This document shows, in pieces, positions 23,888 to 39,061 of a DNA stretch of 64,000 bases (position 1 is the first letter of the stretch; every line of letters starts with the position of its first letter). A program made the translations under genes and the position numbers. This stretch comes from an uncultured Spartobacteria bacterium. Its GTDB lineage: Bacteria > Verrucomicrobiota > Verrucomicrobiia > Chthoniobacterales > Chthoniobacteraceae. The stretch spans positions 248,001 to 312,000 of the forward strand of contig CAIXGS010000076.1 in NCBI GenBank assembly GCA_903919125.1, in the 5' to 3' direction. The notes below the pieces were generated by a model that was given only the letters and a program-made list of their open reading frames with translations, had not been told where the DNA came from and did not search any database.

Positions 23888-26800
23888 TCATTCCGCGACG
23901 AACTCCACTTGGCGTTCCAATACTTCGCCCGTAAGCCGATCGATTGCGAGGTGTACCCACGCTCGGGTTTCGCCCGCTACCATAAACTGCTGAGCATCCG
24001 CAGCGTTCAGAGGATAGTGGCCGGTTTGTACAATCACATCTAACAACAGGTTCCAAACACGGGTTTGCCCGGCGTCCACTAGAGCTCGCACCACGGATTC
24101 CCTCATACGCTGCACCTTGGCGTCGGCGCTTTTGGAAAAAACAGCGTCTAGGTCAGCCGAGAAACCTGTGAAGGTCCATGAAAGCGGGACACCGGGAGCA
24201 ACCGATGGATTGCGCCCTGGAGCGCTGGAAGTTGCCGGCGCGACGCTGGTGTACAGTCCGGCGCAACTCTTGGTAGGCGCTAAAACGCTGGCCGTATACA
24301 CATTGGGCGGCGTTGCCATACCGAGAGCCGGCATATTGCATCCCACCACCCGCCCAGCAAGCTCGCTAAGGTTTCCCAACGGTCCCTTTGCAAAGCCCAC
24401 TCCCGTTGTCCGATCAACCAGCGCTCGTGCCGCCGCACTAACCTCGGAAACCTCCAGGCATTGCGCCTCATCGCGTTCATCCTTAAGCGCACCAGCCAAC
24501 AGCGCCCGCAACACGACCTCCTGACGCGTATTCAAGTTCACCCGCCCGGCTACGAGCGGCGAGCCCCCAACAGCAGACTCGCTCACGCAGAACAAATCCA
24601 GAAGCGCAGCATCGCCAGTTTCCGGCGCACTGAAGTCCAATTGTTTCCATGGCGCACCTCTGAACACCACCCCAAGCTCGGCCACCGAACGAAACGGACG
24701 GTCTAAAATAACGGGCCGATTACGCTCGCGTGCCCCCGACAATTGCGCCAAAGCCAGTCCCTCTCCAGTCGCCCCGTAACCAGCACCGCCCCCAGCGTAG
24801 CCGCCCATTGCTCGGCGCACCACGTCATCAGGATCCGCGTACGCCTGACGCTCAAAATGAGTGGCATCAGGCGCCACGTTTTCACTGAGCCAACCTTGGC
24901 GAAACGAGTCCGCCCAGTATTGCCACTTTCCCGTTTCGGTAGATTCCTGACTGCCGGCATCGTGGCTGTAATCCTCCCAAAAATGAGGAAAACCCCGCGC
25001 GCCCGCTGGAGCGGCAGTCGTAAAAGTCGCGGGATTCCCGAAGCGCGAAATCCACCCATAGTCGTTGGCATTCTGGGACGGACATTGCACCAAAGAGCGT
25101 ACGGCCCACCACGCTCCCAGCTTTTGATACAAACTCGCAAGTATCGCAGGATCCTGATCCATCGCCGCCTTAAAAGAGACCCAACTCTGGTTAAACTGGG
25201 CGGGACCACTTCCCAAAGCCGCCATCGCTCCCGAAGTTCCGTCGAGCTTTGGACGATCCGTAATCCCATCACCTGTAGCACTGAGAGGAACCTGCAATGC
25301 CTTCGCTGCCAAAGTTCCATCGCCAATCACAGCGTTCTGCCAATTGTACGCATAGCGCTGGGTCGCCCCAAAACGCGGCGTGCGAGGATCACAAACGGTC
25401 AACAGTGGGTTGGACCAAGCCAGAGCGGGCAACTTGCCCTCGACAGGAACAGCGTTCCACTGACCTTGATAGGGAGGTGCATCTGGCACCATGCGGCCGT
25501 CCATGCTCAGGAAGCGCTCGTCGTACGTAATCCATTTTCCAGAATTCGGTTCCTGGTACTGCAACCTGAGCTTGAGTGTGCACCAGTTACGCTGTCCCAC
25601 CAAATTAACGGGCACCTGAAAAAAACGCCACAGCGTACCCGAAGAGGAGGCTGCTCCTGAAACATCGCTTAGCACGGGAGTTCCGGTGACGGTGGTTTTG
25701 GGCGCACCCACCAAACGTTGAGCAGAAATGAACTGACTCGGCACCTCGCCCAGCGAAAAGCCCACCCAATTTATACCCTCGCTTCCGCGCAATACGCCAA
25801 AGTACGGCGCACTCTGAAAAAAGTTTTCCGCCCCAAACCCAAGAGCCGTGCCCTCAGGAAGTCCTGGCGAACACAAGGTGGTTGGCTCACGAAACAAAGT
25901 CGGCAATCCCAACGGGAGCTCGAGTCTCAATTCTGAGTTGCGCAACTCAATGCGCGTCGGCAGCGGATCATCCGCGTGCAACTGCGCCACGGGCAGCACA
26001 CTCCAACTACGCGCGACTCGTCCGTCCGCCGGAACGAACCAAACCGGCGAGGAGTCATCGGCCTGACCGCTTGCGTTGCCCCTAAAACTCGAACCCCTAC
26101 AGGCAACCGGTGGAGCGTCATTTTGAGGCGTCCCAGCCGGATAGAAGGCTCCCGGCAATAATTTCCAAAAAGCAAAGCCCTCTACGGCGAAGCGCAAACT
26201 CGTCGACCCAACGGGAACTTTAGGCCAGAACAAATAAGAACTCGGCTCCGCCGGCGCGTTAGTTGCCAACCGGGCGCTGTGACTGTCGTCTGCATCGGAA
26301 CTGACTCCGTAAAACTCGTAAGACGAACTAAATCGCCGATCGTGAAAAAACGTCTTCGTACTTTTGCCGGGGCTCGCCAGCGAAAATGCGTACGCCCCAG
26401 ACGGCCAGGACGCAAAGTGCGCATGCCGGTCGGTCGCCGCTCCCGTCTGCATTAACGTCTTCCATCGCGTCCCCAACATCGGAAAAAACGGCCGCAACGC
26501 ATTCCCTCCAAAGCTCGCGCCCTCGGGATCCTCACCCACGGCAACCACCCTTAACCGCATTGAACCTGAAGCCAAACGAACCGGTGGAGCATGGGGATTC
26601 CACAATTCGGGAAATGCGATAAGCGAGGTGGTTCCTGGGAAAAATCCGTCTCCCACAAAATTAGCGATACTATCAGTGATCTCCCTAATCGAAGTGACCT
26701 TTGGCGAAGCCGGTGACACGGCATTTTCAACCGCACGCCAATGGAGGCGGTAGAGGTACGGCAAGTTTTCGATGCCTCGCGCTGTGAAAGTTGGAGCAAA

Positions 26801-28876
26801 CACCGCAGCTCCCGCAGCGGATAAAGTCGTACCACCAATCTTGATAATTGTGGGGAAACTATCGGCATCAAACTGATCAATGATGTTTGCGCCGATCTCG
26901 AGAACCTGATTACTGGGATCCTTGTCGCGCAACTGCGAAACGGTGGCGGGATCATGGGCCCATCCTTCCATTCCAACGTGCTGTTTCATCGCAGCTTTCC
27001 CCAAAGAACCGACTAGGATTCCAGCCTTGAGTAGCTCAAAGAAATCCGGCTCCCGACCGTCAAGCGCTACCTGCTGCAACCGCCCAATCCCTTCGGCAGG
27101 AACCGCACCACCGCGCTTACTATGATCGTAGCGCCAGAAAAAACTCCCGACTTCATCAGGAGGAGTAGCTGGAGCATCGCTACCGAGATACGCCAAACCC
27201 GCCTCAGCTGTCCATTCCAAGCCAAACCACGCCTTGATCGCATCGGGAGTTCCATCCGCATTATAAAGCGGATCCGCCTTAGGCAACAAAGCGCTTGGTC
27301 CCTTACACGTCAGCCAGGCAAGCCGCGACAACGCAAAGCGCTGCCTTACCAACGGCTCTCCAATGACAGCCTGCGTGCCATCCCTCCTCGTAAACGGAAC
27401 AACGACACGCACCTCTAATAAGCCTGGATTGATCGCGTCCTGCAAACGCCCAGTCCCCGGCTGCCCCCGCTGCCCAAAAGTGCCCCAAGCGTCGTTACCG
27501 CCTCGGTTATTACCCAAGGCCATTTCGTATGGAAGATTGAGCAATCGGCGTACATCCTTCACATCCAAATCAGCAGCGACTTCGCTGGGATACAAAACGT
27601 CGGGCCAACCGCTTGCCGGAGGGACAATCTCAGGCAGCTTCCAACTTTTCGAAACCGCGTCGTACACTCCAGGTCGCACGGAAGGCTGCTCCAAGGCTCT
27701 CGAAAAGTGCGTGAGATATTGTAATGAATCCGTCAGTGCCTCGGTTTCCGCCGTAGAACCACCCAATGCACGAACCATTTTGATCATCGCCTGACGGCTG
27801 TAAAATGCTCGATCCCCCGCGTTGGCGATCCTGAGAAAACCTCCATTTTTGTTACTGTTAAACAGATAGTTTAAAACCCGATTCCCAAAAGGCGCCACAT
27901 CCTCGGCCCGCAACACTCCTTGGTTTCTCCAAGCCACAAGGCCCACCAATGCCCTGCTCCCGAAGTTGAGTTCTCGCAAATCCGCCAGCCCGACGCTGCC
28001 CTTGCGACTGGCCGAAGTCGTGGGTACAAACGCGGGATCGTACCCCGCCGCATTTAAATCTAGGAGCCCGCCTTCATCGTAAATTTGGTAAGCGAAGCGG
28101 GCAACCACAGCACCCGCGTCGGCACGTTCCGCGGACCGACTCCTCAATGCGCCACTCCATGTAGTTGGATTTGCGCCGCACCTAGTTACAAGAATCCAGT
28201 CTGGTGCGTACCAAGACCAGGCAGCGTCCGCCCCGTCTACCCTAGCAGAGCCACTGGAAGCAGGCGTCAAATCGTCCGCCGCACCTGTCGCGCCACGAGG
28301 AAGCAACAGGGGGCCATTCCAACGCGCTCCATTAACCCCTCGAGCATTGAGAGATGCCGCCGCAGTAGACGCCGCAACCGCTCGTATCGGAACTAAATTT
28401 GTCGCGCTCTGTGGATACACGGGAGTCTCATAAACAAGGGTCGTTTCATCGTAAAACTGCCCCCCCGAGCGACTCTGTTTTACAAGATTGGGAGGCAGGC
28501 CGCTGGCTCGCCACGGAACAACGCTCCACGACGTTGCGGGATAATACAACGACGGCACCATTTGTGGACTCACCGACCCCGCTTTAAGTTCCGCCCGTAA
28601 GTCTCCCAGCACCACCGCCTCGGCAGCCTCCAAGGCCAGACGCCCCATCAAACGCGATGATTGGCCGGAGGCAATCGCCTCGCCACGGAATGCGGCGAGA
28701 TTACAAGCGAGGACCAAAGCGCTCAGGAGCGCGACCAACAACAGCACCAGCACCAACGCTGCGCCGCATTGCCGGCCCAGCCTGTTGCTGGGATTTCTAC
28801 ATGAGCCAAAAACCAGTTCACTTTCCGCGCCGTAATTTAAGCCGTTACACCATTTTCCCGTTATTATTTTCCTCAT
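23888..28876 (-). CDS. giant Verru_Chthon cassette A-type protein (GspK-like pseudopilin)
   Basis: 1662 residues from the ATG at 28876, which has a good AAAGGA site just upstream; the frame stays open further to 28978. The N terminus is prepilin-like: a basic leader ending RQCG (38), then one hydrophobic helix (AALVLVLLLVALLSALVL) and GQSSRLMGRLALEAAEAVVL, the pattern of the Verru_Chthon A family. Like type II secretion GspK it has YQIYDEGGLLDLNAAGYDP (about residue 265) and, near the C terminus, VAGRVNLNTRQEVVLRALL. The rest is large exported beta-rich sequence. The cassette B, C and D genes are not adjacent. Confidence 0.85.
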   Translation of the reverse strand: MRKIITGKWCNGLNYGAESELVFGSCRNPSNRLGRQCGAALVLVLLLVALLSALVLACNLAAFRGEAIASGQSSRLMGRLALEAAEAVVLGDLRAELKAGSVSPQMVPSLYYPATSWSVVPWRASGLPPNLVKQSRSGGQFYDETTLVYETPVYPQSATNLVPIRAVAASTAAASLNARGVNGARWNGPLLLPRGATGAADDLTPASSGSARVDGADAAWSWYAPDWILVTRCGANPTTWSGALRSRSAERADAGAVVARFAYQIYDEGGLLDLNAAGYDPAFVPTTSASRKGSVGLADLRELNFGSRALVGLVAWRNQGVLRAEDVAPFGNRVLNYLFNSNKNGGFLRIANAGDRAFYSRQAMIKMVRALGGSTAETEALTDSLQYLTHFSRALEQPSVRPGVYDAVSKSWKLPEIVPPASGWPDVLYPSEVAADLDVKDVRRLLNLPYEMALGNNRGGNDAWGTFGQRGQPGTGRLQDAINPGLLEVRVVVPFTRRDGTQAVIGEPLVRQRFALSRLAWLTCKGPSALLPKADPLYNADGTPDAIKAWFGLEWTAEAGLAYLGSDAPATPPDEVGSFFWRYDHSKRGGAVPAEGIGRLQQVALDGREPDFFELLKAGILVGSLGKAAMKQHVGMEGWAHDPATVSQLRDKDPSNQVLEIGANIIDQFDADSFPTIIKIGGTTLSAAGAAVFAPTFTARGIENLPYLYRLHWRAVENAVSPASPKVTSIREITDSIANFVGDGFFPGTTSLIAFPELWNPHAPPVRLASGSMRLRVVAVGEDPEGASFGGNALRPFFPMLGTRWKTLMQTGAATDRHAHFASWPSGAYAFSLASPGKSTKTFFHDRRFSSSYEFYGVSSDADDSHSARLATNAPAEPSSYLFWPKVPVGSTSLRFAVEGFAFWKLLPGAFYPAGTPQNDAPPVACRGSSFRGNASGQADDSSPVWFVPADGRVARSWSVLPVAQLHADDPLPTRIELRNSELRLELPLGLPTLFREPTTLCSPGLPEGTALGFGAENFFQSAPYFGVLRGSEGINWVGFSLGEVPSQFISAQRLVGAPKTTVTGTPVLSDVSGAASSSGTLWRFFQVPVNLVGQRNWCTLKLRLQYQEPNSGKWITYDERFLSMDGRMVPDAPPYQGQWNAVPVEGKLPALAWSNPLLTVCDPRTPRFGATQRYAYNWQNAVIGDGTLAAKALQVPLSATGDGITDRPKLDGTSGAMAALGSGPAQFNQSWVSFKAAMDQDPAILASLYQKLGAWWAVRSLVQCPSQNANDYGWISRFGNPATFTTAAPAGARGFPHFWEDYSHDAGSQESTETGKWQYWADSFRQGWLSENVAPDATHFERQAYADPDDVVRRAMGGYAGGGAGYGATGEGLALAQLSGARERNRPVILDRPFRSVAELGVVFRGAPWKQLDFSAPETGDAALLDLFCVSESAVGGSPLVAGRVNLNTRQEVVLRALLAGALKDERDEAQCLEVSEVSAAARALVDRTTGVGFAKGPLGNLSELAGRVVGCNMPALGMATPPNVYTASVLAPTKSCAGLYTSVAPATSSAPGRNPSVAPGVPLSWTFTGFSADLDAVFSKSADAKVQRMRESVVRALVDAGQTRVWNLLLDVIVQTGHYPLNAADAQQFMVAGETRAWVHLAIDRLTGEVLERQVEFVAE

Positions 28877-29697
28877 GGATTCCTTTCTGTTCCGGGGTTC
28901 AAGACCCCCACTTACCGGCGGCGAGTGACACTCAAGACACTTCATCCAACCCCATTGCCGAATCGCTTTTCTCCACACCTTCCGATTCGGAAAATCCTCG
29001 CAATCACATCTGGCGACGACCGCCAGCCCACTGCCTCTGGGAAATCAATTTCCACTTCGCTGCACAACCCGATTCCAGCGATAAACCTCCTGAACGAAAA
29101 GGCGCTCCCCTAAAAATAACCGTTATCCAACACGGCAAAGAAAGCGTCGCACGGCTCGAAACCGAGGACGGCAACCATTTCGAGTTTTGGACCCTTGGAC
29201 ACGCTGAAATCGATGGTGTGGCAGGACAATTGCGAGTGCGCCCCGCACGCGTTGCTAGCAACTCAGGGGCAGCGAACAAATCTTTGGATGAGCCTTCGTC
29301 TGTAACTAAGCCACCTCCAATTTGGAAAGCAGACTGGCATTCGTTTCGGGATTTCCAGTGGCTGCGCCCAGAACTATTGCGAGGCACCATCCTCGTCGGG
29401 ACAGAGCGCATGCTCGTTTTCGCCTACGCCACTCCCAGCCTCATAGGAAGCAAACGCTTAAGCGGTTTATTTATAGAACGAAACCCGATTGGTGGCCTTC
29501 CAATGCTTGATGGAATCAGCGCCGCCGCCATTCACGAAGGCTCCCTTCTCCCCGCCATGCTGCAACGTGGCCCCGAGGTTCGCACCTACAAGTTTTCCCC
29601 GCTGCCCCAGCAGAAGCTCGAGATCCCACAGCACATCGCTCTGTTCCTAGAAAACCTCCGCGCATCGCACCCCGTTAAACCTAGACCAACGCCATGA
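28801..29697 (+). CDS. unknown exported protein, first gene of the Exb operon
   Basis: 298 residues from the ATG at 28801; the frame is open upstream to 28657 but that part is the antisense of the Verru_Chthon A gene. A short basic start and hydrophobic stretch (YTIFPLLFSSWIPFCSG, about residues 16-32) suggest export, with a Cys near the end of it. After a Ser/Asp-rich linker there is a beta-rich domain (LWEINFHFAAQPD; ITVIQHGKESVARLETEDG). I do not recognise the family. Its 5' end overlaps the divergent Verru_Chthon A gene by 76 bp, and its stop overlaps the TPR gene by 4 bp (ATGA). Confidence 0.65.
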   Translation: MSQKPVHFPRRNLSRYTIFPLLFSSWIPFCSGVQDPHLPAASDTQDTSSNPIAESLFSTPSDSENPRNHIWRRPPAHCLWEINFHFAAQPDSSDKPPERKGAPLKITVIQHGKESVARLETEDGNHFEFWTLGHAEIDGVAGQLRVRPARVASNSGAANKSLDEPSSVTKPPPIWKADWHSFRDFQWLRPELLRGTILVGTERMLVFAYATPSLIGSKRLSGLFIERNPIGGLPMLDGISAAAIHEGSLLPAMLQRGPEVRTYKFSPLPQQKLEIPQHIALFLENLRASHPVKPRPTP

Positions 29698-32612
29698 TGT
29701 GCCACCCTAGATCACCCATGACAGCTTGGTGCAGCGCCGTCGTTTTCATCGTCCTGTTCCCCACAAAAGCCATCGCCGCACCGAAGCAAACCCTCCAGAC
29801 GCCGCTCCATCCGTTAGCGCTCCCCGCTAATAATACTCCAACACCCTTCACCAACCTAACCGCGGAAGACCTACTACGCCTCGCCAACCGCAGTCTTGCC
29901 GCCGGCAATTCGGCAGATGCATCAAATGCTTTCCTGTGCTTTCTAAAGGATTTTGAAGACCGTCAGGAAACCGCTCTGCTCGTGCGTAAATTTCGCCCAA
30001 GTCTGGCAATTTCTCTCATGCGATTGGGACGTTTCGCAGAAGCGCACCAACAACTCGAAAAAGCGATAGCCACACGCCCCGCGTATCCAGAACCCCTGCA
30101 AGGAGAGCTTCTCTTTCAAAATGGAATCTGCGCTATGCAGCTCAACCTTTTCGCAGAGGCGCGCAATATTTTCCTCAGCGCAATGCCGCCGCTTGTTGAA
30201 CGCCTCCAATTAGGAGCGAACCTTCCCCCGCGAGCCCAGCAAATCCATCTGCTGATTGCGTCGTGCCTGTTTCACGAAGCGACCCCAAAAGAAGCTGCAG
30301 CTCACCTATCCAGAGTGCGCCATCTTCTTGATTCCGAAAATCAAACGCGCGCAGCGGCGCTACAATTTCGTGCCCTCATTGCTGGAGAATCCTTTGAGCA
30401 GGCTCTTCAACTTTTTCAATCCGACGCCACGCGCCTCACTGATTCGCGCTATCTACTAACCACCCAAACCCTCCTGCTCAAACTCGGAGACGGGCTTTTA
30501 GAACGTGGCCTCAATCGGCAAGCCTTAGCGGCGTTGCGACAAATCCGACCGTTTGAAAAACTCCTCCAGTTTCAGGACTCAGTCCTTGCCGCGCGATCTG
30601 CGCAAGTAAAGTCCCAGGAAACTCAGCGCCAACCGGAGCGTCTTGGCAGCGTTGAAGTCACCTCCGCTGACGCCGACGCCCATGTCGAACTGGAGGCGTT
30701 CCGAGTGCTAAAAAACTTTGACCTCTCCGTGCGCCTGCGCCAAGTCGCCGCCTATCAGGCGCTCCAACGCCACCAAGAAGCCGCACTCGTTCTAGAACAA
30801 GCACTGGAGGGCTGCTCCCAAAGTCCCCTACTCGATGGTGCCATCATTTCCTTAGCGCAATGCTGGGGCGAACTGGAACGCTGGGAAAAAGTGCTCTCAC
30901 TCGCCTCCCGCTTTTTACAGAACACACCTCAGAACGCCACCCAGAATCCCACGCAGAATCCCACGCAGAATCCCACGCAAAACGTCAAGCAACGCTCAGC
31001 CTTGACCTACTTTAAGGGGCTCGCGGAACAAAAAATGGGACTATACGTGGAGAGCCTCCGCACTCTGGACTCGCTTTCACAAGTCCGCCCGCAACAAGAA
31101 TTCGAGTTGCGTGCAGAATTTTCAGCCGCATTCACGCAATTACTCGCCGACCATCCCGCCGACGCCGCCGCACGTTTTCGCCTTTACCTTAACCGACATC
31201 CCAAGCACGCCACGGCCGAAGATGCCTCCCGATGGTTCTGTGTAGCTTTGGGTTTCGATAAACAACACGCAGCGTGTCGCGCCGCGGCGGACGACTACGT
31301 CGTTCATTTCCCGGAGGGCGAAGTGCGTCCAGTGGTGCTCTTGCAAAAAGCGCGCTCCACCTCAGCTCTCAAACTTCAGGCTCAGGCCGAGGCGGAACTG
31401 AACGCTTGGCTGGTTAACTTCCCCCAACATGAACTCAAAGGAGAAGCGGCTCTGATGCTCGGTGATCTCCTGTCTGCACGAAACGCGACAGATGCAGCGC
31501 TCGTCAGCCTCGCTAAAATCCCGAGCACGCAGTCGCGGCCCTTTGACGAAGGCTTCTTTAAAGCAGCAAAACTTCTCCAACAGAGCCAACAACTTCCGCA
31601 ACTGTACGCGCATCTCCTGCGTTTTCCCGATCAACGCCCGGAAAGTCCTCGCTTGGCAGAGGCCGTTCTTTGGGCTGCCAAAGTCGCCGAGTCTCCTGAG
31701 TCGGGCGCCCCAAACCACGCGGCTCATGATCTGCCATTCGATATCCTTCGCCGCCACGGGGACAATCCGGTTGCGGAGGGAGTGGAGGGAATCTTTGACC
31801 CCATGGCCAAGCAGGCTTCAACGCCCGAACTTCGCACCGCTTTGCTGCATCGACTCACACTTGCTCACAAGGAATCCAGCCAATCGGGTAAAATGTGTCT
31901 CACCCGCAGGCTTCTTTGGGCCATTGGACGCGCCCAGCTTGCAACCAATCCCACGGCGGGCCAAGCCGCTCTACTCAACGCTGCGGACAAAGCACCTCCG
32001 GATTCTACGAGCCCGCGCCTCCTCGCAGACTTCGCCGATGCGCTCGCAATGGCAAGTCGTCCCAATGAGGCCAAACTCTGCTGGCTGGATCTCATTAAAT
32101 GGCACCCTGCAGCCGCTCAAAAAGACAGCGCATTCGCGTTTTTAGCCGCCTCAGCTGCTGCCGCTGGAGACAAAAACTCTGGCCTTGGATGGATTACACG
32201 CTTCGAAAAAGAATGCGGGGCATCCGCTCAGTCCGGCTCAATTTTACTAACAAAAGCCCATATCCAAGAGGCCTCGGGAGATCCTAAAGAAGCCCGAAAA
32301 ACCTTGGAAGCACTACTCAAAGAACGCGCCGTCCCCGCAGAATTCAAGGCGGACGCCCTCCTGTTGCTTGCGGATTCACACATGCACTCACGAGATCCGC
32401 ACACCGCAATCCCATACTATCAAAGGGTATACGTTATGTATGCACGCTGGCCAGAGCGCGTGGCAAAAGCCTATCTGCGCAGCGGCGAAGCCTTTGAGGC
32501 GCTCGGCAATGTCCCAGCGGCACGGCGTACTTATCAGGAAATGCTCGCCTCCTCTCTTCCTCGAATCGCCGAGGCGCAAACCCACTTGGATTCCTTGGAG
32601 GGACTCGAATGA
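29694..32612 (+). CDS. large exported TPR-repeat protein
   Basis: 972 residues. There is a signal peptide (WCSAVVFIVLFPTKAIAAP, residues 12-30), then many degenerate tetratricopeptide helices: LLRLANRSLAAGNSADASNA, SLAISLMRLGRFAEAHQQLE, VAAYQALQRHQEAALVLEQA, and at the end YYQRVYVMYARWPERVAKAY followed by RSGEAFEALGNVPAARRTYQ. The series resembles YbgF/BamD-type periplasmic scaffolds. A Gln-Asn-Pro-Thr repeat sits near residues 409-432. It is coupled by ATGA overlaps to both neighbours and followed by exbB/exbD genes, so it is likely the periplasmic scaffold of that system. Confidence 0.85.
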   Translation: MMCHPRSPMTAWCSAVVFIVLFPTKAIAAPKQTLQTPLHPLALPANNTPTPFTNLTAEDLLRLANRSLAAGNSADASNAFLCFLKDFEDRQETALLVRKFRPSLAISLMRLGRFAEAHQQLEKAIATRPAYPEPLQGELLFQNGICAMQLNLFAEARNIFLSAMPPLVERLQLGANLPPRAQQIHLLIASCLFHEATPKEAAAHLSRVRHLLDSENQTRAAALQFRALIAGESFEQALQLFQSDATRLTDSRYLLTTQTLLLKLGDGLLERGLNRQALAALRQIRPFEKLLQFQDSVLAARSAQVKSQETQRQPERLGSVEVTSADADAHVELEAFRVLKNFDLSVRLRQVAAYQALQRHQEAALVLEQALEGCSQSPLLDGAIISLAQCWGELERWEKVLSLASRFLQNTPQNATQNPTQNPTQNPTQNVKQRSALTYFKGLAEQKMGLYVESLRTLDSLSQVRPQQEFELRAEFSAAFTQLLADHPADAAARFRLYLNRHPKHATAEDASRWFCVALGFDKQHAACRAAADDYVVHFPEGEVRPVVLLQKARSTSALKLQAQAEAELNAWLVNFPQHELKGEAALMLGDLLSARNATDAALVSLAKIPSTQSRPFDEGFFKAAKLLQQSQQLPQLYAHLLRFPDQRPESPRLAEAVLWAAKVAESPESGAPNHAAHDLPFDILRRHGDNPVAEGVEGIFDPMAKQASTPELRTALLHRLTLAHKESSQSGKMCLTRRLLWAIGRAQLATNPTAGQAALLNAADKAPPDSTSPRLLADFADALAMASRPNEAKLCWLDLIKWHPAAAQKDSAFAFLAASAAAAGDKNSGLGWITRFEKECGASAQSGSILLTKAHIQEASGDPKEARKTLEALLKERAVPAEFKADALLLLADSHMHSRDPHTAIPYYQRVYVMYARWPERVAKAYLRSGEAFEALGNVPAARRTYQEMLASSLPRIAEAQTHLDSLEGLE
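30918..30989 (+). repeat. 12-bp tandem repeat inside the TPR gene
   Basis: Three perfect copies of CAGAATCCCACG (30942-30953, 30954-30965, 30966-30977) lie inside six 12-bp units in all (30918-30989). The flanking units are diverged. They encode QNTP, QNAT, QNPT three times, and QNVK, keeping the frame. Copy-number change here would lengthen a linker between TPR blocks without a frameshift. Confidence 0.9.
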
Positions 32613-33724
32613 GCAGCCTACACCCAAAACTTACCGTCCTGATCTGCGTCCTCGCTCCGTTTAAACTCGCCTGCGCCGATCTGGTAACGCTCAAGGACGG
32701 TCAACAGCGCGTCGGCCACATCGCCGGGCAGTTAGAGAACGTATTATTATTTGAAGTCCAACCCGCCCCGACTCTACCTCCCGTGCAATTACGCTTCCCA
32801 CTTGCACACATAGCCTTGCTCAAGTTCGAAAAGAATCCCGCTGCAGACGAACTACTCCGGCTCGCTGCCACAGGCGACTCCTCCACCCTTCAGGAATTGT
32901 GGGAACGCTTCAGGCCCCTACTCAAAAACGACGCCTCTCCAAGTGCCGCAATCGGTCTTCGCTACGGACTCCTTCTGCTCAACACCCAGACGCTTAACTC
33001 TAGGGAAGACGCTTTGACACTCTTTTCCCTTCTCGCCATCGACTCCCCCACCCTCGCCGAGCGGGATGCCGCTCTTCAGGGCATTCTCAGGGCACTTTTG
33101 TGCCTCGGAAAAACTCAGACTGCTCAAAATCAAGCTACTGAGATCCTCAAAAAGACGCCCTCTGCTCCGCTCGCATCCGAGGCCAATCTCACACTAGCGA
33201 CATTAGCCGACTCCGCTTTTCGGAAGTTTCTCGAACAACATCCACGCTGGCAAGAGGACCCTTTTTCCCAACCCGAGTACCACACGCTTCACCACGCTAT
33301 CCTCGACTTTTATCTGACCGCAGCGCTACTGCCCGAAGCTCCTCCAGAGCTTGCCCAACGCGCACTTCTAGGCGCAATGGGCGTCCATCGGCTGTGTAAG
33401 GCCCTCCCACCAGCCGCAGAAATTGCTCGGGATCTCACCCTGTTTTTCCCAGACACGCCAGCCTCACAGATCGCCACGGCGTTTCTCCAGTCCCTGCCAG
33501 CGTCTCTACTCAACAGCGATATTCCCCCAGTGACCGCCCCCCGAGCCTCCTCAACATCCTCAGGCGAGCGCACACAAAAGGCCCCGAAATCCGAAAACCA
33601 AAACTCCATTCAAAATGCAAAAACGACTAACTCTACCGCTGCCCCTGATGCTCCTACTTCTACCCATCACCGCAAACGCAGCCGATCTGGAACACAGCAA
33701 GACGCTGCTGGACCTTTACCGTGA
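32609..33724 (+). CDS. unknown exported protein between TPR and exbB genes
   Basis: 371 residues with a signal peptide (LTVLICVLAPFKLACAD, residues 8-24). The first domain is short and beta-rich (LVTLKDGQQRVGHIAGQLEN; LRFPLAHIALLKFEKNP), like small secreted Sm-like or SH3-like domains. It is followed by helical repeats of TPR type (about 80-300). The last 50 residues are Ser/Thr/Asn/Lys-rich and disordered, and are encoded in a 110-bp overlap with the exbB frame. It is ATGA-coupled to the TPR gene. Family not recognised. Confidence 0.75.
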   Translation: MSSLHPKLTVLICVLAPFKLACADLVTLKDGQQRVGHIAGQLENVLLFEVQPAPTLPPVQLRFPLAHIALLKFEKNPAADELLRLAATGDSSTLQELWERFRPLLKNDASPSAAIGLRYGLLLLNTQTLNSREDALTLFSLLAIDSPTLAERDAALQGILRALLCLGKTQTAQNQATEILKKTPSAPLASEANLTLATLADSAFRKFLEQHPRWQEDPFSQPEYHTLHHAILDFYLTAALLPEAPPELAQRALLGAMGVHRLCKALPPAAEIARDLTLFFPDTPASQIATAFLQSLPASLLNSDIPPVTAPRASSTSSGERTQKAPKSENQNSIQNAKTTNSTAAPDAPTSTHHRKRSRSGTQQDAAGPLP

Positions 33725-34373
33725 CGGTGGACCGATCATGCACCTCATTGCCCTCTGCTCCGTAGCGGCCCTCTCCCTCGCTGCCTACTGCTTTATCAGC
33801 CTGCGCAAATGCCGGATGCTCCCCCCTTTACTGATTTCCGAGCTGAACACTTTTCTTTCTCAAAAACAATTACGAGAAGCCTACGAGCATTGCACGACGC
33901 ATCCCGGCCCACTCACGCACAGCCTCGCCAACGCTCTTATCAAGGCCAATTACGACCGTGATATGTATAACAAAGCAGCCATGGAAAACGCATTGGCTGA
34001 TGAGTGTTTCCGCGCAGAAACCAAGCTCATGGTCACCGTGAATTACTTCAATACCCTCGCCGTTCTCGCACCCATGATCGGTTTGCTGGGTACCGTTTCG
34101 GGAATGATTAACAGTTTCGGTGCGCTTACAGCAGGGCGGGCGGAGGCTGCCGATTTGGCGAAAGGCATTGGCGAAGCGCTTGTGGCCACAGGCGGCGGAC
34201 TGCTGCTTGCGATCCCCTCGATGTTCCTCTACTTCCATTTCCGCGGGTCGGTTTCATCCAACATGGCGGATATGCACGCCGCTCTTTCCCACATGCTCGA
34301 CCGTTTCACTGGCGAGGCCCACGGCACCCCGCCAGCGTCAAACCAACACAACGCCGCGCTTGCGACACTCTAG
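33615..34373 (+). CDS. exbB: MotA/TolQ/ExbB proton channel family protein
   Basis: A 252-residue inner-membrane component of a proton-motive-force-driven TolQ/ExbB-type motor. It begins with a signal-like segment (LPLPLMLLLLPITANAAD), as in many Planctomycetes/Verrucomicrobia homologues. Then come TM1 (MHLIALCSVAALSLAAYCFI), a cytoplasmic loop, TM2 with NTLAVLAPMIGLLGTVSGMI, the family signature, and TM3 with ALVATGGGLLLAIPSMFLYF. The chosen start lies 110 bp inside the preceding gene. Starting later, at MHLIAL, would remove the leader. Two exbD genes follow at once. Confidence 0.92.
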   Translation: MQKRLTLPLPLMLLLLPITANAADLEHSKTLLDLYRDGGPIMHLIALCSVAALSLAAYCFISLRKCRMLPPLLISELNTFLSQKQLREAYEHCTTHPGPLTHSLANALIKANYDRDMYNKAAMENALADECFRAETKLMVTVNYFNTLAVLAPMIGLLGTVSGMINSFGALTAGRAEAADLAKGIGEALVATGGGLLLAIPSMFLYFHFRGSVSSNMADMHAALSHMLDRFTGEAHGTPPASNQHNAALATL

Positions 34374-34377
34374 CGCC

Positions 34378-34809
34378 ATGTCCGCACCCACATCCCGTCG
34401 CCGCCCATTGCGCCGAATAGAACACGAGGAAGTCGGCCTCCAAATCGCGCCCATGATCGACGTAACACTGCTTCTGCTTTTCTTTTTTATGCTCTCAGGA
34501 AAACTCACTCGCAGCGCAAAACTCATGCGCATCAACGTGCCCACCGCCGCCGCCGCACACGACACGCCCGCTTCCTCTCCGCGGGATGTCATCAATATCG
34601 ACGCCGCTGGCCATTACTTTGCTGGCGAAAAGCCACTCAATTCCAACGAACTCGCCGCCCACCTGCGCGCACGTTTCCACAACACGCCGCCACTGAAACT
34701 CCAGGTCCGCGCCGACGCTTCCACACCCGTGGCGAAAATCAAAAACCTTATGCATCTTGCCGCAGAAGCCGGAGCCCTAGAAGTCGTGTACGGAGTCCGC
34801 GCACAATGA
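34378..34809 (+). CDS. exbD: ExbD/TolR family biopolymer transport protein (first copy)
   Basis: 143 residues from the ATG at 34378; the frame is open far upstream, but that is the antisense-frame shadow of exbB. One N-terminal membrane helix follows EVGLQIAPMIDVTLLLLFFF, with the conserved channel Asp in PMIDV (residue 27). A periplasmic TolR-like domain includes RDVINIDAAGHYFAGEKPL and the C-terminal VAKIKNLMHLAAEAGALEVV. The gap to exbB is 4 bp, and the stop overlaps the second exbD copy by ATGA. Confidence 0.92.
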   Translation: MSAPTSRRRPLRRIEHEEVGLQIAPMIDVTLLLLFFFMLSGKLTRSAKLMRINVPTAAAAHDTPASSPRDVINIDAAGHYFAGEKPLNSNELAAHLRARFHNTPPLKLQVRADASTPVAKIKNLMHLAAEAGALEVVYGVRAQ

Positions 34810-35246
34810 AGCGCGCGGAACATCCCAAGGTGGAACTGCAAATTGCACCACTCATCGACGTGTGCTTCCTCCTGCTATTTTTCTACATCCTCACGTCTAA
34901 ACCCGTAGTGCCGGAGAAGGACCTTTCCGTTTCACTTCCGGGTACCGCCCAACAAGATGTGCCTCTAATAATCCCTGATGAACAACGTATCGAAATTCTC
35001 GAATCCGGCCAAATCATCCTGAATCAAGAGCCGCTCGACACCGTTGCCAGCAAGGATTTACCTCAATTACACGTTCTGCTGAAACGCTTGGTTCTGAGCG
35101 CGGCAGCCAACAAAACAGTCGCCTTAATCACCATCGACGCCGACGACCGTGCGAAGCACCAACGCCTAGTCGACGTGCTCAACGCCTGCTCCAAGGCCGG
35201 GGTCGGATCAGTCACTTTTGCAGACTCTTTGGAGGCCCAGAATTGA
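34806..35246 (+). CDS. exbD: ExbD/TolR family biopolymer transport protein (second copy)
   Basis: 146 residues with the same layout as its upstream neighbour: a short cytoplasmic tail, the membrane helix ELQIAPLIDVCFLLLFFYIL with channel Asp in PLIDV (residue 19), and a periplasmic domain with IEILESGQIILNQEPL and KHQRLVDVLNACSKAGVGSV. The two copies differ clearly in sequence, so they may form a heteromeric pair in one motor. Overlaps of 4 bp at both ends show tight translational coupling. Confidence 0.92.
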   Translation: MKRAEHPKVELQIAPLIDVCFLLLFFYILTSKPVVPEKDLSVSLPGTAQQDVPLIIPDEQRIEILESGQIILNQEPLDTVASKDLPQLHVLLKRLVLSAAANKTVALITIDADDRAKHQRLVDVLNACSKAGVGSVTFADSLEAQN

Positions 35247-36289
35247 ACTCCGCTACGACCGAAAATCACGATCGTCGCAGTCAGCGCCGAAAGCTGATTG
35301 TCTCCATACTCGCAGCCAGCCTCGCGATTCACGCAGGCGCGGCGCTTCTAGCCGGCGCATGGATCGTTGCGCGCCATTTTTCGACGACGGCACAAAAGAT
35401 TGAACCCGTACTCAAAGCCGTCCCGCCAGCTCCGCCTCCCGTGACCGAACGCGAGCAACGACTCAATGCAGCGGCACTAGAAGGCGGCCCAGCAAAATCC
35501 ACAGCCGCCAACCGACTGCAGAGCGCAAGGCTTGCTCCGATCGCCCTGCCGGCACTTCCCAAATTGCCCAACGCCCCCGTGCTGCCGCTTAACGCAGCCG
35601 ATCTTTCGGCAACATCCATCCTTTCCAACGCATTCAACGATGCCGAGGGAAACGGCGCCGGTATCGGCAAGGGCGCCAACGGATCAGGAGCCGGGCCGGG
35701 AGTCAATTTTCTGGGCGTTCAAACCAATGCCAAACGCATCGTGCTCATGTACGACGTCTCTAAAACCGTCGCCAACGCAGCAGCTAAAGTCCGTGTTCCC
35801 ATGGAAAGCATACGCACCGAGACGGAACGCCTCATCACAGGGCTGAGTGTGAACACCCGCTTCACTATGGTGGAATTCGCTAGAAACTACGCGTTTTTCA
35901 AACCCGAACTCGTCTCATCCACGACAACCAACCGAACCGCCGCAACCCAATGGCTCGCAAATTACTTCGCCACCACAGGAACCATTCCCCATGGCGTACC
36001 CGGCTTGGTCTCGGGCAGTCCCGGCTTTCTGGTCACTCTCGAAGCCGTATTCAAACTGCTTCCAGATGCCGTTTTCATTCTCTCAGATGGCAGTATGCAA
36101 AGAGGAACCGGTACTAACTCCACCATTCCCCTGCCTGAAATTGAAAAAACGCTTTCCGAGCTTCAAGCCACGCTCCCTCAAAAAGCAAAAATCTACTTTA
36201 TCGGAGTAGGAACCAGCCCCGAAACCGAACACGGGTTGCGCCGTTTGCTCGCAAATACCGGGGGCACTTTTTCCGTCTTGAAACCGTAG
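35243..36289 (+). CDS. membrane-anchored VWA-like protein closing the Exb operon
   Basis: 348 residues starting at TTG 35243, which overlaps the exbD stop (TTGA). It has a TonB-like N-terminal anchor (KLIVSILAASLAIHAGAALL, residues 17-36), a Pro/Ala-rich periplasmic linker (PPAPPPVTEREQR) and a Gly-rich stretch (GNGAGIGKGANGSGAGPG). A von Willebrand A-like domain follows from about 160: RIVLMYDVSKTV carries a D-x-S-x-T version of the MIDAS motif, then FTMVEFARNYAFF and AVFILSDGSMQRGTGT. It is positioned where TonB or TolA would be, so it may be what the ExbBD motor acts on. Confidence 0.8.
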   Translation: MNSATTENHDRRSQRRKLIVSILAASLAIHAGAALLAGAWIVARHFSTTAQKIEPVLKAVPPAPPPVTEREQRLNAAALEGGPAKSTAANRLQSARLAPIALPALPKLPNAPVLPLNAADLSATSILSNAFNDAEGNGAGIGKGANGSGAGPGVNFLGVQTNAKRIVLMYDVSKTVANAAAKVRVPMESIRTETERLITGLSVNTRFTMVEFARNYAFFKPELVSSTTTNRTAATQWLANYFATTGTIPHGVPGLVSGSPGFLVTLEAVFKLLPDAVFILSDGSMQRGTGTNSTIPLPEIEKTLSELQATLPQKAKIYFIGVGTSPETEHGLRRLLANTGGTFSVLKP

Positions 36290-36318: not shown

Positions 36319-37596
36319 TTAAAGAAAAATCGAAATCGCATGAATGAGCACCCCCACAAGCCCGCCAATTAAAGTGCCGTTTATCCGAATAAACTGCAAA
36401 TCTGCCCCCACTTCCAATTCCAACTTTTCACTCATTTCACGCCCGTCCCAAGCCGCCATCCTCTCTTCAATCATGTGCCCAAAGCTGTGCCTGTGTTTTT
36501 CCACAATTCCCGCTAACGCACTGCGCAGCCATACATTGAGCCTGTCCATAAAAGCGGGGTCTTCTTCAATCGTCGCCACCCCCTCAAAAAGCATCTTCTC
36601 TACTTTCTCCTGCAAGCCGGAATCAGGCCGAGCCGCCTTTTCCAGCCAAAGCCGGATTTCCGCCCAAATGTTGGCAGCGTAACTGCGCACCCCTGCATTC
36701 GAAAGTAGCTCGCGCTTCAACTCCTCCCCCTTCGCCGCATACTCCGGCGACGTCTTGAGCTCCGCCACCAACTGCGCCACCCGCGCAGCGAAGCGTCTCC
36801 GTACCGGATGCTCCCTGTCAGTTCCAGCAGAACGCAAAAGCTCCTGCACCTTCCCAATTAGCTTGTCCGCAATCCACTCGGCGATCGGCTCCTTAAACCC
36901 TTTGAGCGAAATCCCCAAAACGTCTTCAGGCAAAGGCACCTCCTTCTCAATACTCTGCTGAATCGCCTGTTGGTGCTCCGCAATAAGACGCCCCGCCTGC
37001 TGAAGCACCTCATCCAAGAGGACCTCGTGCTTCCCCCCAGCCGTGAGGATTTCCAAAATCCGCCCTCCCAGAGGCGCTATGGGCAAAGCATAAATCTGGC
37101 GTTCCAACTGGGCTTGAATCAATCCGGACATCTCCTCGTGATTCAATGACTGCACAAGACGAGGCACCATCCGGCACAGATTTTCTGCGAGAATCGGCGC
37201 CGCGCTTTTCACCCATCCCAACCCCAAAACCACAAGATTCATTTGCCCCAAACGTTTTCGTACAACCTCCTCACTCAAAAAGTTTTCCACTACAAAAGTC
37301 CCCAGAGTTTTGGCAATCTCGTTCTTGCGCGTTGGCAGGATTGCCGTATGAGGAATGGGCAAGCCGAATGGATGCCGAAACAAGGCGACGACGGCGAACC
37401 AGTCCGCGAGCGCGCCCACCATGGCTGCCTCCGCAAACGCCTGCAGCCAACTCAAGGCGGGCACCGCCGGTTGCCCCAGTCGCGCCACGAAGAAAAGTGC
37501 GACCATCAACAAGAAGAGAGCCGAAGCCACGGCCTTCGTCCGCGAAAGACGCCGTTGTTTGGCAACCACGAAAGAAGAAGGCGAAACGTCATTCAT
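36319..37596 (-). CDS. DUF445 family membrane protein
   Basis: 425 residues from the ATG at 37596 (MNDVSPSSF); the frame upstream to 37692 is not supported. There is an N-terminal membrane helix (AVASALFLLMVALFFVARL), then the DUF445 hallmark AMVGALADWFAVVALFRHP followed by GLPIPHTAILPTRKNEIAKT. A long amphipathic helical middle follows, and the C-terminal helix LIGGLVGVLIHAISIFL anchors it again. The family is related to E. coli YjiN and B. subtilis YheB; function unknown. It lies downstream of the potassium channel gene on the same strand and converges with the Exb operon. Confidence 0.9.
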   Translation of the reverse strand: MNDVSPSSFVVAKQRRLSRTKAVASALFLLMVALFFVARLGQPAVPALSWLQAFAEAAMVGALADWFAVVALFRHPFGLPIPHTAILPTRKNEIAKTLGTFVVENFLSEEVVRKRLGQMNLVVLGLGWVKSAAPILAENLCRMVPRLVQSLNHEEMSGLIQAQLERQIYALPIAPLGGRILEILTAGGKHEVLLDEVLQQAGRLIAEHQQAIQQSIEKEVPLPEDVLGISLKGFKEPIAEWIADKLIGKVQELLRSAGTDREHPVRRRFAARVAQLVAELKTSPEYAAKGEELKRELLSNAGVRSYAANIWAEIRLWLEKAARPDSGLQEKVEKMLFEGVATIEEDPAFMDRLNVWLRSALAGIVEKHRHSFGHMIEERMAAWDGREMSEKLELEVGADLQFIRINGTLIGGLVGVLIHAISIFL

Positions 37597-37759
37597 GGTA
37601 TAATCAGGAGCGAACTCACTGCAGTATAACACAACTGCAGCATTCGCAATCTGCGAAGAAATAGCTCCCACCCGCACCAAAGTCCCGCCCAACCGTTGGA
37701 AAGGCGCTCAAAAAGTTCGCTTCCCTTTCTGAGTGCTTCGAGCAAACCGCCGCTTTCCG

Positions 37760-38785
37760 CTAACGCTTACCGTGGAGGCGAGCCTGAAATTCCTCGTCGC
37801 TCATCGCCAATAACTCGTCGTAATGAGCTCCCTTAATCAGTTCGATTTCCAACATGGTTTTCACCAAAGCCTCTCTTGTCGGCCGACTGTCCATCTGTTC
37901 ACCAAAAAGCAAAACCATTAACGTCTTTCCAACTATATTCATCAAAATACCAAATAAAACCAACCCCAGTAACATTGTGAATCCAGCTAAAAAACGCCCC
38001 CCAAAAGTCACGGGATACATATCCCCGTAACCAGTTGTCGTCAGCGTTACGATACACCACCACATCGCAGCAGGTATCGACGTGAAAAATTGTTTGTCGG
38101 TCGGGATGGGATTTCCCCCAACAGGATCCTGTGGCACAAACTTACGGTCTGCTTCAGGAAGATCCTTGGAAGCTGGGTCCGCTGCCAATTTTGCATCCAA
38201 ATCTTTCTGGCCTTGCTCTATCGCATCCTTCGTATAATAGCCGCCTTCCACGTAGTACATCAGGGTGCTGGAAATCATCATCACTGAGAATAGCGCGATC
38301 AAATAGATCCTGAGATTTGCAATGATTGGATTCGAGTTCTCAATTTTAGCTTTGTTGGTTATATCCATTAAAGCGACTCGGGCCATTTTCAGAACTCGAA
38401 GTACCCTCACTACACGCAGCAAACGAAACACCTTCGCACCCTGTAGTGCGGTGAGGTTTAATATCATTAAATAACTTGGGAGAATCGAAATGAGATCGAC
38501 TATTCCCCAAAAGCTAAAAATATAGCGGATTCGATTTCCAGAAAAATAAAAGTTAGCGATGTAATCCAAGGTAAAGAAGAACACAGCCACAATCTCCACC
38601 ATCCAAAACAAACTAGGATTTTTCGATGCGAATGGTTCCACAGTTTCCATCGCCATCGACAAGCAAGAACCAAAAATCAGAAGGTTAAGGAACCCCTGCC
38701 AACGCAAGAACAGAGGATGACTTGGATCCGTGAACATTTCACGCAGGATGTGCTCTTTGGTAGGGGTAATTTCTTTAGTAGTCAT
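37760..38785 (-). CDS. voltage-gated-type potassium channel
   Basis: 341 residues from the ATG at 38785; an AGGAG site 11 bp upstream supports it over the in-frame TTG at 38803. It is a six-helix Kv-like subunit. S1-S3 have Glu/Asp pairs (FFFTLDYIANFYF). S4 has arginine every third residue (RLLRVVRVLRVLKMAR, about 120-135). S5 follows, then a charged turret of about 55 residues, and the pore with selectivity filter TTTGYGDMYP (about 260). S6 is LAGFTMLLGLVLFGILMNIV. A short cytoplasmic tail ends the protein. The long polar S5-pore linker is unusual. K+ specificity follows from TxGYGD. Confidence 0.92.
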   Translation of the reverse strand: MTTKEITPTKEHILREMFTDPSHPLFLRWQGFLNLLIFGSCLSMAMETVEPFASKNPSLFWMVEIVAVFFFTLDYIANFYFSGNRIRYIFSFWGIVDLISILPSYLMILNLTALQGAKVFRLLRVVRVLRVLKMARVALMDITNKAKIENSNPIIANLRIYLIALFSVMMISSTLMYYVEGGYYTKDAIEQGQKDLDAKLAADPASKDLPEADRKFVPQDPVGGNPIPTDKQFFTSIPAAMWWCIVTLTTTGYGDMYPVTFGGRFLAGFTMLLGLVLFGILMNIVGKTLMVLLFGEQMDSRPTREALVKTMLEIELIKGAHYDELLAMSDEEFQARLHGKR

Positions 38786-39061
38786 CTTTACGGAACTCCT
38801 CAACAGGGGGTGGTTGAATCACCCGAGCACGTAGCAATCATTGTGCCATTTGCTTAAATCACAACCGTGATAATGGCGCAAAACACTAATCCTTATGCCT
38901 TTAGCGAAACACCTAGTTCATTGCGGCGAAATCGCTATGAAGAGATTCATGTGATTCAGACAACCCGAGCACGCCCAGAGCTCGGTTCGGTTCAGTATTG
39001 TGAGCCCTAGAAAGCCCAACTCACAGTCCAATAGAAAGATGAGTTACCCCCGCATCTGTTA
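38786..39061. other. AT-richer intergenic stretch, no gene seen
   Basis: The gap between the divergent potassium channel and glycosyltransferase genes (to 39219) is the longest in the window. Apart from the small frame at 39062-39226, I see no convincing ORF, RNA gene or clear promoter pair. A TTGACT at 39089-39094 could be a -35 element, but no good -10 follows at the right spacing. Base composition drops here and stays lower through the glycosyltransferase gene. Confidence 0.6.

What the first reader, a model, noticed from the sequence alone, without database searches (positions are those of the whole stretch)
28801..36289. Seven-gene overlapping operon pairing an ExbB-ExbD-ExbD motor with a giant TPR protein and a VWA effector
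Seen: six junctions, of which five overlap (four by 4 bp, one by 110 bp) and one has a 4-bp gap. Order: unknown exported protein, TPR, unknown exported protein, ExbB, ExbD, ExbD, VWA-like with a TonB-type anchor. No TonB, TolA, Pal or TonB receptor is present. Known: ExbBD/TolQR stators drive rotation or pulling of a partner through the periplasm. Inferred: here the Gly/Pro-linked VWA protein is the driven partner and the TPR proteins the periplasmic scaffold. This is the best candidate for an undescribed system in the window.
Basis: partly seen in the sequence, partly recalled or inferred. Interest (0 to 1): 0.75.

Follow-up and report, generated by a model that had tools for sequence, protein, structure and literature searches.

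The report
Proton-motor operon driving a vWA protein
This operon encodes a proton-driven membrane motor that most likely pulls or turns a membrane-tethered von Willebrand-type protein across the cell envelope; the kind was predicted in a 2025 paper, but here we find that a whole bacterial phylum shares the same five-gene motor-and-scaffold cassette and fits it with at least three different working heads, whose job nobody yet knows.

Summary
In detail: seven same-strand ORFs at 28801-36289 with the stated overlaps. Six of them form the system; the first (g1) is not conserved. The order TPR - g3 - ExbB - ExbD1 - ExbD2 - transducer recurs across the order and, with divergent sequence, across the phylum: 87 of 110 top TPR matches have ExbD2 2.1-3.1 kb downstream on the same strand. 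The motor residues are intact, both ExbDs keep their channel Asp, and the VWA protein has a TonB-type anchor with an invariant His. The genome has separate TonB, TonB-receptor and Tol-like loci, so the VWA protein is the best candidate for the driven partner. The 'undescribed system' claim fails: Mol Biol Evol 2025 msaf138 (PMC12204202) predicts this vWA force-transducer class, including the TPR/TolQ/two-TolR neighbourhood in PVC bacteria. New here, as far as I could read: g3 (SH3-like barrel plus helical solenoid) is a regular fifth chassis gene; the same chassis carries PA14-like or squalene-cyclase-like (alpha-alpha toroid) heads instead of VWA, sometimes in tandem with near-identical anchor/linker DNA; and this genome has a second, dispersed set of parts with a PA14-like head. 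What the force is used for remains unknown.

The parts
28801..29697 (+). g1, exported protein of unknown function; not part of the conserved system; its 5' end overlaps a divergent PilX/GspK-like gene
   Evidence: ORF; no Pfam hit; homologue only in L044 among relatives examined
29694..32612 (+). TPR protein, 972 aa, Sec signal peptide by eye, predicted periplasmic scaffold; chassis gene 1
   Evidence: TPR Pfam hits; orthologues with a full-length profile across the phylum (131 of 388 genomes at E<=1e-30)
32609..33724 (+). g3, 371 aa: signal peptide by eye, small beta barrel (residues 24-72), then helical TPR-like solenoid (77-301); chassis gene 2
   Evidence: AlphaFold2 model mean pLDDT 85; position filled by an ORF of at least 200 aa in 63 of 65 further loci; profile-profile E 6.5e-25 with the divergent ones
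33615..34373 (+). ExbB/TolQ-type motor subunit; channel threonines T160 and T192 kept
   Evidence: PF01618 6e-25; aligns to solved TolQ/ExbB; T160 and T192 in 99% of 84 chassis ExbBs
34378..34809 (+). ExbD1/TolR-type subunit, proton-site Asp28
   Evidence: PF02472 6e-19; Asp28 in 77 of 77
34806..35246 (+). ExbD2/TolR-type subunit, proton-site Asp18; paralogue group distinct from ExbD1
   Evidence: PF02472 3e-18; Asp18 in 76 of 76; separates from ExbD1 in the tree, modest support
35243..36289 (+). Transducer: short cytoplasmic tail, TM anchor with S26-x3-H30, linker ending in a Gly-rich stretch, C-terminal VWA domain
   Evidence: Alignments A1/A5; structure and fold search; matches in 28 of 57 genomes searched, own included
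35291..35362 (+). TonB-type transmembrane anchor of the transducer (about residues 17-40), invariant His30
   Evidence: His30 invariant in 20 of 20; helix 7-47 in the model
35702..36286 (+). VWA head (residues 154-348); D171-x-S173-x-T175 and D282 at the metal-site positions, loop-2 Thr apparently replaced

Best explanation
A proton-motive-force-driven force transducer. ExbB most likely forms a pentameric inner-membrane channel with one ExbD1 and one ExbD2 inside it. Proton flow past the ExbD Asp residues turns the motor. The VWA protein docks on the outside of ExbB through its TonB-type helix (S26-x3-H30), and its Pro/Gly-rich linker carries the VWA head across the periplasm towards the outer membrane. 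The secreted TPR and g3 proteins form the periplasmic scaffold or dock that the head engages. The motor therefore applies force to a head-specific client at the outer membrane or cell surface. Shown: gene order, phylum-wide conservation, intact motor residues, anchor motif, VWA fold, separate TonB and Tol-like loci elsewhere. Inferred: 5:1:1 stoichiometry, docking, force, scaffold role. Unknown: the client and the phenotype.
For: Six-gene order in 12 other genomes of the order, 7 genera in all; phylum-wide chassis. ExbB T160/T192 and ExbD Asp residues essentially invariant (channel positions aligned to solved TolQ/ExbB). Anchor: His invariant in 20 of 20 aligned transducers; in 54 further phylum-wide transducers 50 have a His in the TM, with Ser at -4 in 42. 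VWA fold. Canonical TonB + ExbBD + TonB receptor together on C46 and another TonB_C gene beside ExbB on C1. Same mechanism proposed independently from AF3 models in PMC12204202.
Against: No experiment and no complex model. In one relative (G053) TPR-g3-VWA stand without the ExbB/ExbD genes, and G015 lacks them at this place too, so the motor need not be co-encoded. A few divergent transducers lack the TM His (L167, L175, L196), so docking by His is not universal. Some chassis have no transducer next to them (L122, L123, L128, L164). ExbD1/ExbD2 clade support is only 0.51-0.58.
Confidence: 0.75

Rival explanations
1. An adhesion or gliding machine of the Myxococcus Agl-Glt type: one TolQ-like and two TolR-like subunits, periplasmic TPR protein and a VWA adhesin; the motor moves surface adhesins. 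Compatible with the best explanation; it specifies the output.
For: Part list matches: AglR (TolQ/ExbB), AglQ and AglS (TolR/ExbD), GltC with TPRs, CglB/CglD with VWA_2 (PMC4488436). VWA and PA14 are domains often found in adhesion or glycan binding (general knowledge). PMC12204202 suggests the same.
Against: CglB is an outer-membrane lipoprotein, not an inner-membrane-anchored transducer; GltA/GltB beta barrels, AglZ and the other Glt genes are not in the block. Homology to Agl/Glt proteins was not tested. Toroid heads do not obviously fit an adhesin.
Confidence: 0.3
2. A Tol-Pal-like outer-membrane stabilising system, with TPR/g3 in the place of CpoB and the VWA head pulling an outer-membrane or peptidoglycan partner.
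For: Best solved-structure hits of ExbB and of the ExbD2 profile are TolQ and TolR; TPR scaffold next to the motor.
Against: No TolB, Pal or TolA in the block. The genome has OmpA-family proteins and a TonB_C/ExbB pair elsewhere. Head swapping argues against one fixed housekeeping client.
Confidence: 0.2
3. A nutrient-import energiser: the VWA protein acts like TonB on outer-membrane receptors.
For: TonB-type anchor; ExbBDD motors often serve TonB (general knowledge).
Against: No TonB C-terminal domain and no receptor adjacent; five receptor matches elsewhere, and a TonB-ExbBD-receptor cluster on C46.
Confidence: 0.07
4. Chance or loosely linked operon without a joint function.
For: g1 is indeed a non-conserved passenger.
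Against: 87 of 110 TPR matches with ExbD2 downstream at 2.1-3.1 kb, control count 1.
Confidence: 0.02

Closest known systems
vWA force transducers of Mol Biol Evol 2025 msaf138 (PMC12204202; Tichowtungia family)
   Same: TolA/TonB-like topology, SHLS-type TM with conserved His, disordered linker, VWA C-terminal domain; downstream of TPR, tolQ-like and two heterologous tolR-like genes in PVC bacteria
   Different: The text I could read does not mention g3, PA14-like or toroid heads, tandem heads, or dispersed sets (figures and supplements were not readable)
TonB-ExbB-ExbD
   Same: Motor type and anchor motif
   Different: No TonB C-terminal domain, two distinct ExbDs, TPR + g3 scaffold, no receptor; the canonical system exists separately in this genome
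Tol-Pal (TolQ-TolR-TolA-TolB-Pal-CpoB)
   Same: TolQ/TolR-like motor, periplasmic TPR protein
   Different: No TolA CTD, TolB or Pal; head is VWA
Myxococcus Agl-Glt gliding machine
   Same: One TolQ-like plus two TolR-like subunits, TPR protein, VWA protein
   Different: VWA proteins there are outer-membrane lipoproteins; many further components; homology not tested

Membership tests
vWA force-transducer systems (PMC12204202) | Single N-terminal TM with conserved motor-binding His (SHLS-type) | tested here: met
   S26-x3-H30; His invariant in 20 of 20
vWA force-transducer systems (PMC12204202) | Disordered Pro/Gly-rich linker | tested here: met
   Low-pLDDT residues 82-99 and 114-150 with a Gly-rich stretch
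vWA force-transducer systems (PMC12204202) | C-terminal vWA fold, no TolA/TonB CTD | tested here: met
   Foldseek VWA matches; no TonB_C hit in the window
vWA force-transducer systems (PMC12204202) | Neighbourhood TPR, tolQ-like, two heterologous tolR-like | tested here: met
vWA force-transducer systems (PMC12204202) | PMF-driven, complex with the motor | not testable with these tools
   Needs complex prediction or biochemistry
ExbB/TolQ - ExbD/TolR 5:2 motors | Pfam membership and channel Thr/Asp residues | tested here: met
ExbB/TolQ - ExbD/TolR 5:2 motors | 5:2 stoichiometry (here 5:1:1) | not testable with these tools
   Inferred from two consistently paired ExbD paralogues
TonB family | TonB_C domain | tested here: not met
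   No TonB_C match in the window; head is VWA
Tol-Pal | TolA, TolB and Pal with TolQR | tested here: not met
   None among the genes of the block; no TonB_C or OmpA hit in the window
Myxococcus Agl-Glt gliding machinery | Homology to AglRQS/Glt/CglB and gliding function | not tested
   Only the part list was compared

The most novel reading that the evidence does not exclude
A phylum-wide exchangeable-head force-transducer platform: a constant chassis (TPR, g3, ExbB, ExbD1, ExbD2) energises interchangeable transducers that share anchor and linker but carry VWA, PA14-like or squalene-cyclase-like toroid heads, swapped by recombination and sometimes run in tandem from one motor; this genome runs two, the VWA operon and a dispersed PA14-like set.
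Probability: 0.6. Interest if true: 0.68.

Novelty: new member of a known kind. Interest (0 to 1): 0.5.

Why it matters
Only a few trans-envelope force systems are understood (Ton, Tol-Pal, Agl-Glt). Another conserved TonB-like system across Verrucomicrobiota, with no deletion phenotype reported for its vWA class (PMC12204202), is a directly testable gap. The head swaps give natural chimeras: one motor and anchor with three kinds of working end, so the client-specific part can be separated from the motor part. The consistent pair of ExbDs suggests a heterodimeric stator that could be tested structurally.

Tried and rejected
Using g3 alone to find the system phylum-wide gave a long tail of generic TPR matches, so TPR and ExbD2 profiles were joined by coordinates instead. 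The g3 fold search gave only weak generic TPR matches (E >= 1e-3), so no family name is offered. The first idea that VWA is the defining head was dropped when PA14-like and toroid heads turned up. Literature searches for PA14 or squalene/prenyltransferase heads next to ExbBD found nothing, within an open-access library only. Considered and rejected: g1 as a system part; TonB or TolA as the hidden partner.

Full report
OBSERVATION. Pfam confirms the TPR protein, ExbB and both ExbDs. The last protein has no Pfam hit on its own, but orthologues hit VWA families. Its model is confident from about residue 154 on, and solved VWA domains are the dominant matches. The finding is therefore real in the sequence.

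WHAT BELONGS TOGETHER. The VWA protein was matched in 28 of the 57 genomes searched, own included. In 12 other genomes of the order (7 genera in all) the complete block TPR - g3 - ExbB - ExbD1 - ExbD2 - VWA is present in that order. The first ORF, g1, was seen in only one of the relatives with flanking sequence (L044), where the divergent pilin-like (PilX/GspK-like) neighbour is also kept. I treat g1 as a passenger. The unit is thus six genes.

PHYLUM-WIDE CHASSIS. Profiles of the TPR protein and of ExbD2 were searched in the same 388 genomes of the phylum. Of the 110 best TPR matches, 87 have an ExbD2 match downstream on the same strand, at a distance of 2,061-3,065 bases (median 2,383). Only one pair lies in another arrangement within 7 kb. 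The distance leaves room for g3, ExbB and ExbD1. In 63 of 65 further loci an ORF of at least 200 aa fills the g3 position, and even those that my g3 profile missed align to g3 (profile-profile E 6.5e-25, with the caution that TPR-like repeats attract each other). g3 is predicted as a five-stranded small barrel followed by a helical solenoid. The text of PMC12204202 that I could read does not mention it.

MOTOR. ExbB aligns with solved TolQ and ExbB chains, and the profile of ExbD2 with TolR and ExbD chains. Across chassis loci ExbB Thr160 and Thr192 are 99% conserved, ExbD1 Asp28 is present in 77 of 77 and ExbD2 Asp18 in 76 of 76. The matching of these residues to the E. coli channel residues rests on the alignment and on general knowledge. 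ExbD1 and ExbD2 fall into two groups in a tree, with one exception that belongs to a second Exb cluster, but with modest support. A heterodimeric stator (5:1:1) is the natural reading; it is inferred.

TRANSDUCER. The anchor has S26-x3-H30, and His30 is invariant in 20 of 20 aligned transducers of the order. Over 54 more distant transducers, 50 have a His in the TM and 42 of these have Ser four residues before it; L167, L175 and L196 clearly lack the His. This is the TonB/TolA docking motif. In the window-type head Asp171, Ser173, Thr175 and Asp282 occupy metal-site positions, but the loop-2 Thr is apparently not kept, so metal binding is uncertain.

NO OTHER PARTNER. A TonB_C protein, ExbB, ExbD and a TonB receptor lie together on contig C46; another TonB_C protein lies beside ExbB on C1. 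OmpA-family hits are on other contigs. Nothing of the kind is in the window.

EXCHANGEABLE HEADS. In 93 transducers examined, head-specific profiles (trained on some of the same sequences) assign 73 to VWA, 13 to a squalene-hopene-cyclase-like alpha-alpha toroid and 7 to PA14-like, none ambiguous. Pfam agrees where it reaches significance. In L113 two transducers lie in tandem, one VWA and one PA14-like, both with an N-terminal SAM domain; 413 bases covering anchor and linker are 94.7% identical, and then the heads are unrelated. L162 and L163 have toroid plus PA14-like heads in tandem; L126 and L160 have two toroid heads. The window's own genome has a second set, dispersed: TPR-g3 on C5 (L109), ExbB-ExbD1-ExbD2 on C67 (L039) and a transducer with a PA14-like head on C36 (L226). 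That these three loci work together is inferred from their being the only such orphans found. I found no report of the other heads.

KNOWN OR NEW. PMC12204202 (2025) describes the vWA force-transducer class, gives the TPR/tolQ/two-tolR neighbourhood in PVC bacteria, models the motor complex, and says that no deletion phenotype is known. The window operon is a member of that predicted kind. The additions here are g3, the head swaps and tandem heads, the synteny count and the second dispersed set.

MECHANISM AND RIVALS. Most likely: proton flow turns ExbB/ExbD1/ExbD2; the transducer is moved through its anchor; TPR and g3 receive or position the head in the periplasm; a head-specific client at the outer membrane or surface feels the force. 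The nearest understood machine by part list is the Myxococcus Agl-Glt gliding apparatus; Tol-Pal is the nearest by motor sequence. Neither membership holds on present evidence. The function of the output is open.

Noticed in passing
window 23888-28978 (-): Very large (up to 1696 aa) PilX/GspK-like protein whose 5' end overlaps g1 on the other strand; the pair with g1 is kept in L044 but not in most relatives.
   Followed up: partly
L046 (G053) and L055 (G015): TPR - g3 - VWA adjacent with no ExbB/ExbD between; G043, of the same genus as G053, has the full block, so the motor genes were lost or moved.
   Followed up: partly
L219-L225: Variant loci: TPR - g3 - ExbB without ExbD1/ExbD2 directly downstream; several neighbours are unrelated housekeeping genes.
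   Followed up: partly
L113:10229-13241: Tandem transducers with a SAM domain in the predicted cytoplasmic tail: a sign that some transducers assemble or are regulated on the cytoplasmic side.
   Followed up: partly
L126, L164: Two ExbD2 genes in one chassis; L126 also has two toroid-head transducers.
   Followed up: no
window 36319-38803 (-): DUF445 protein and an Ion_trans-family channel downstream on the other strand, conserved next to the block in the closest relative (L040).
   Followed up: no
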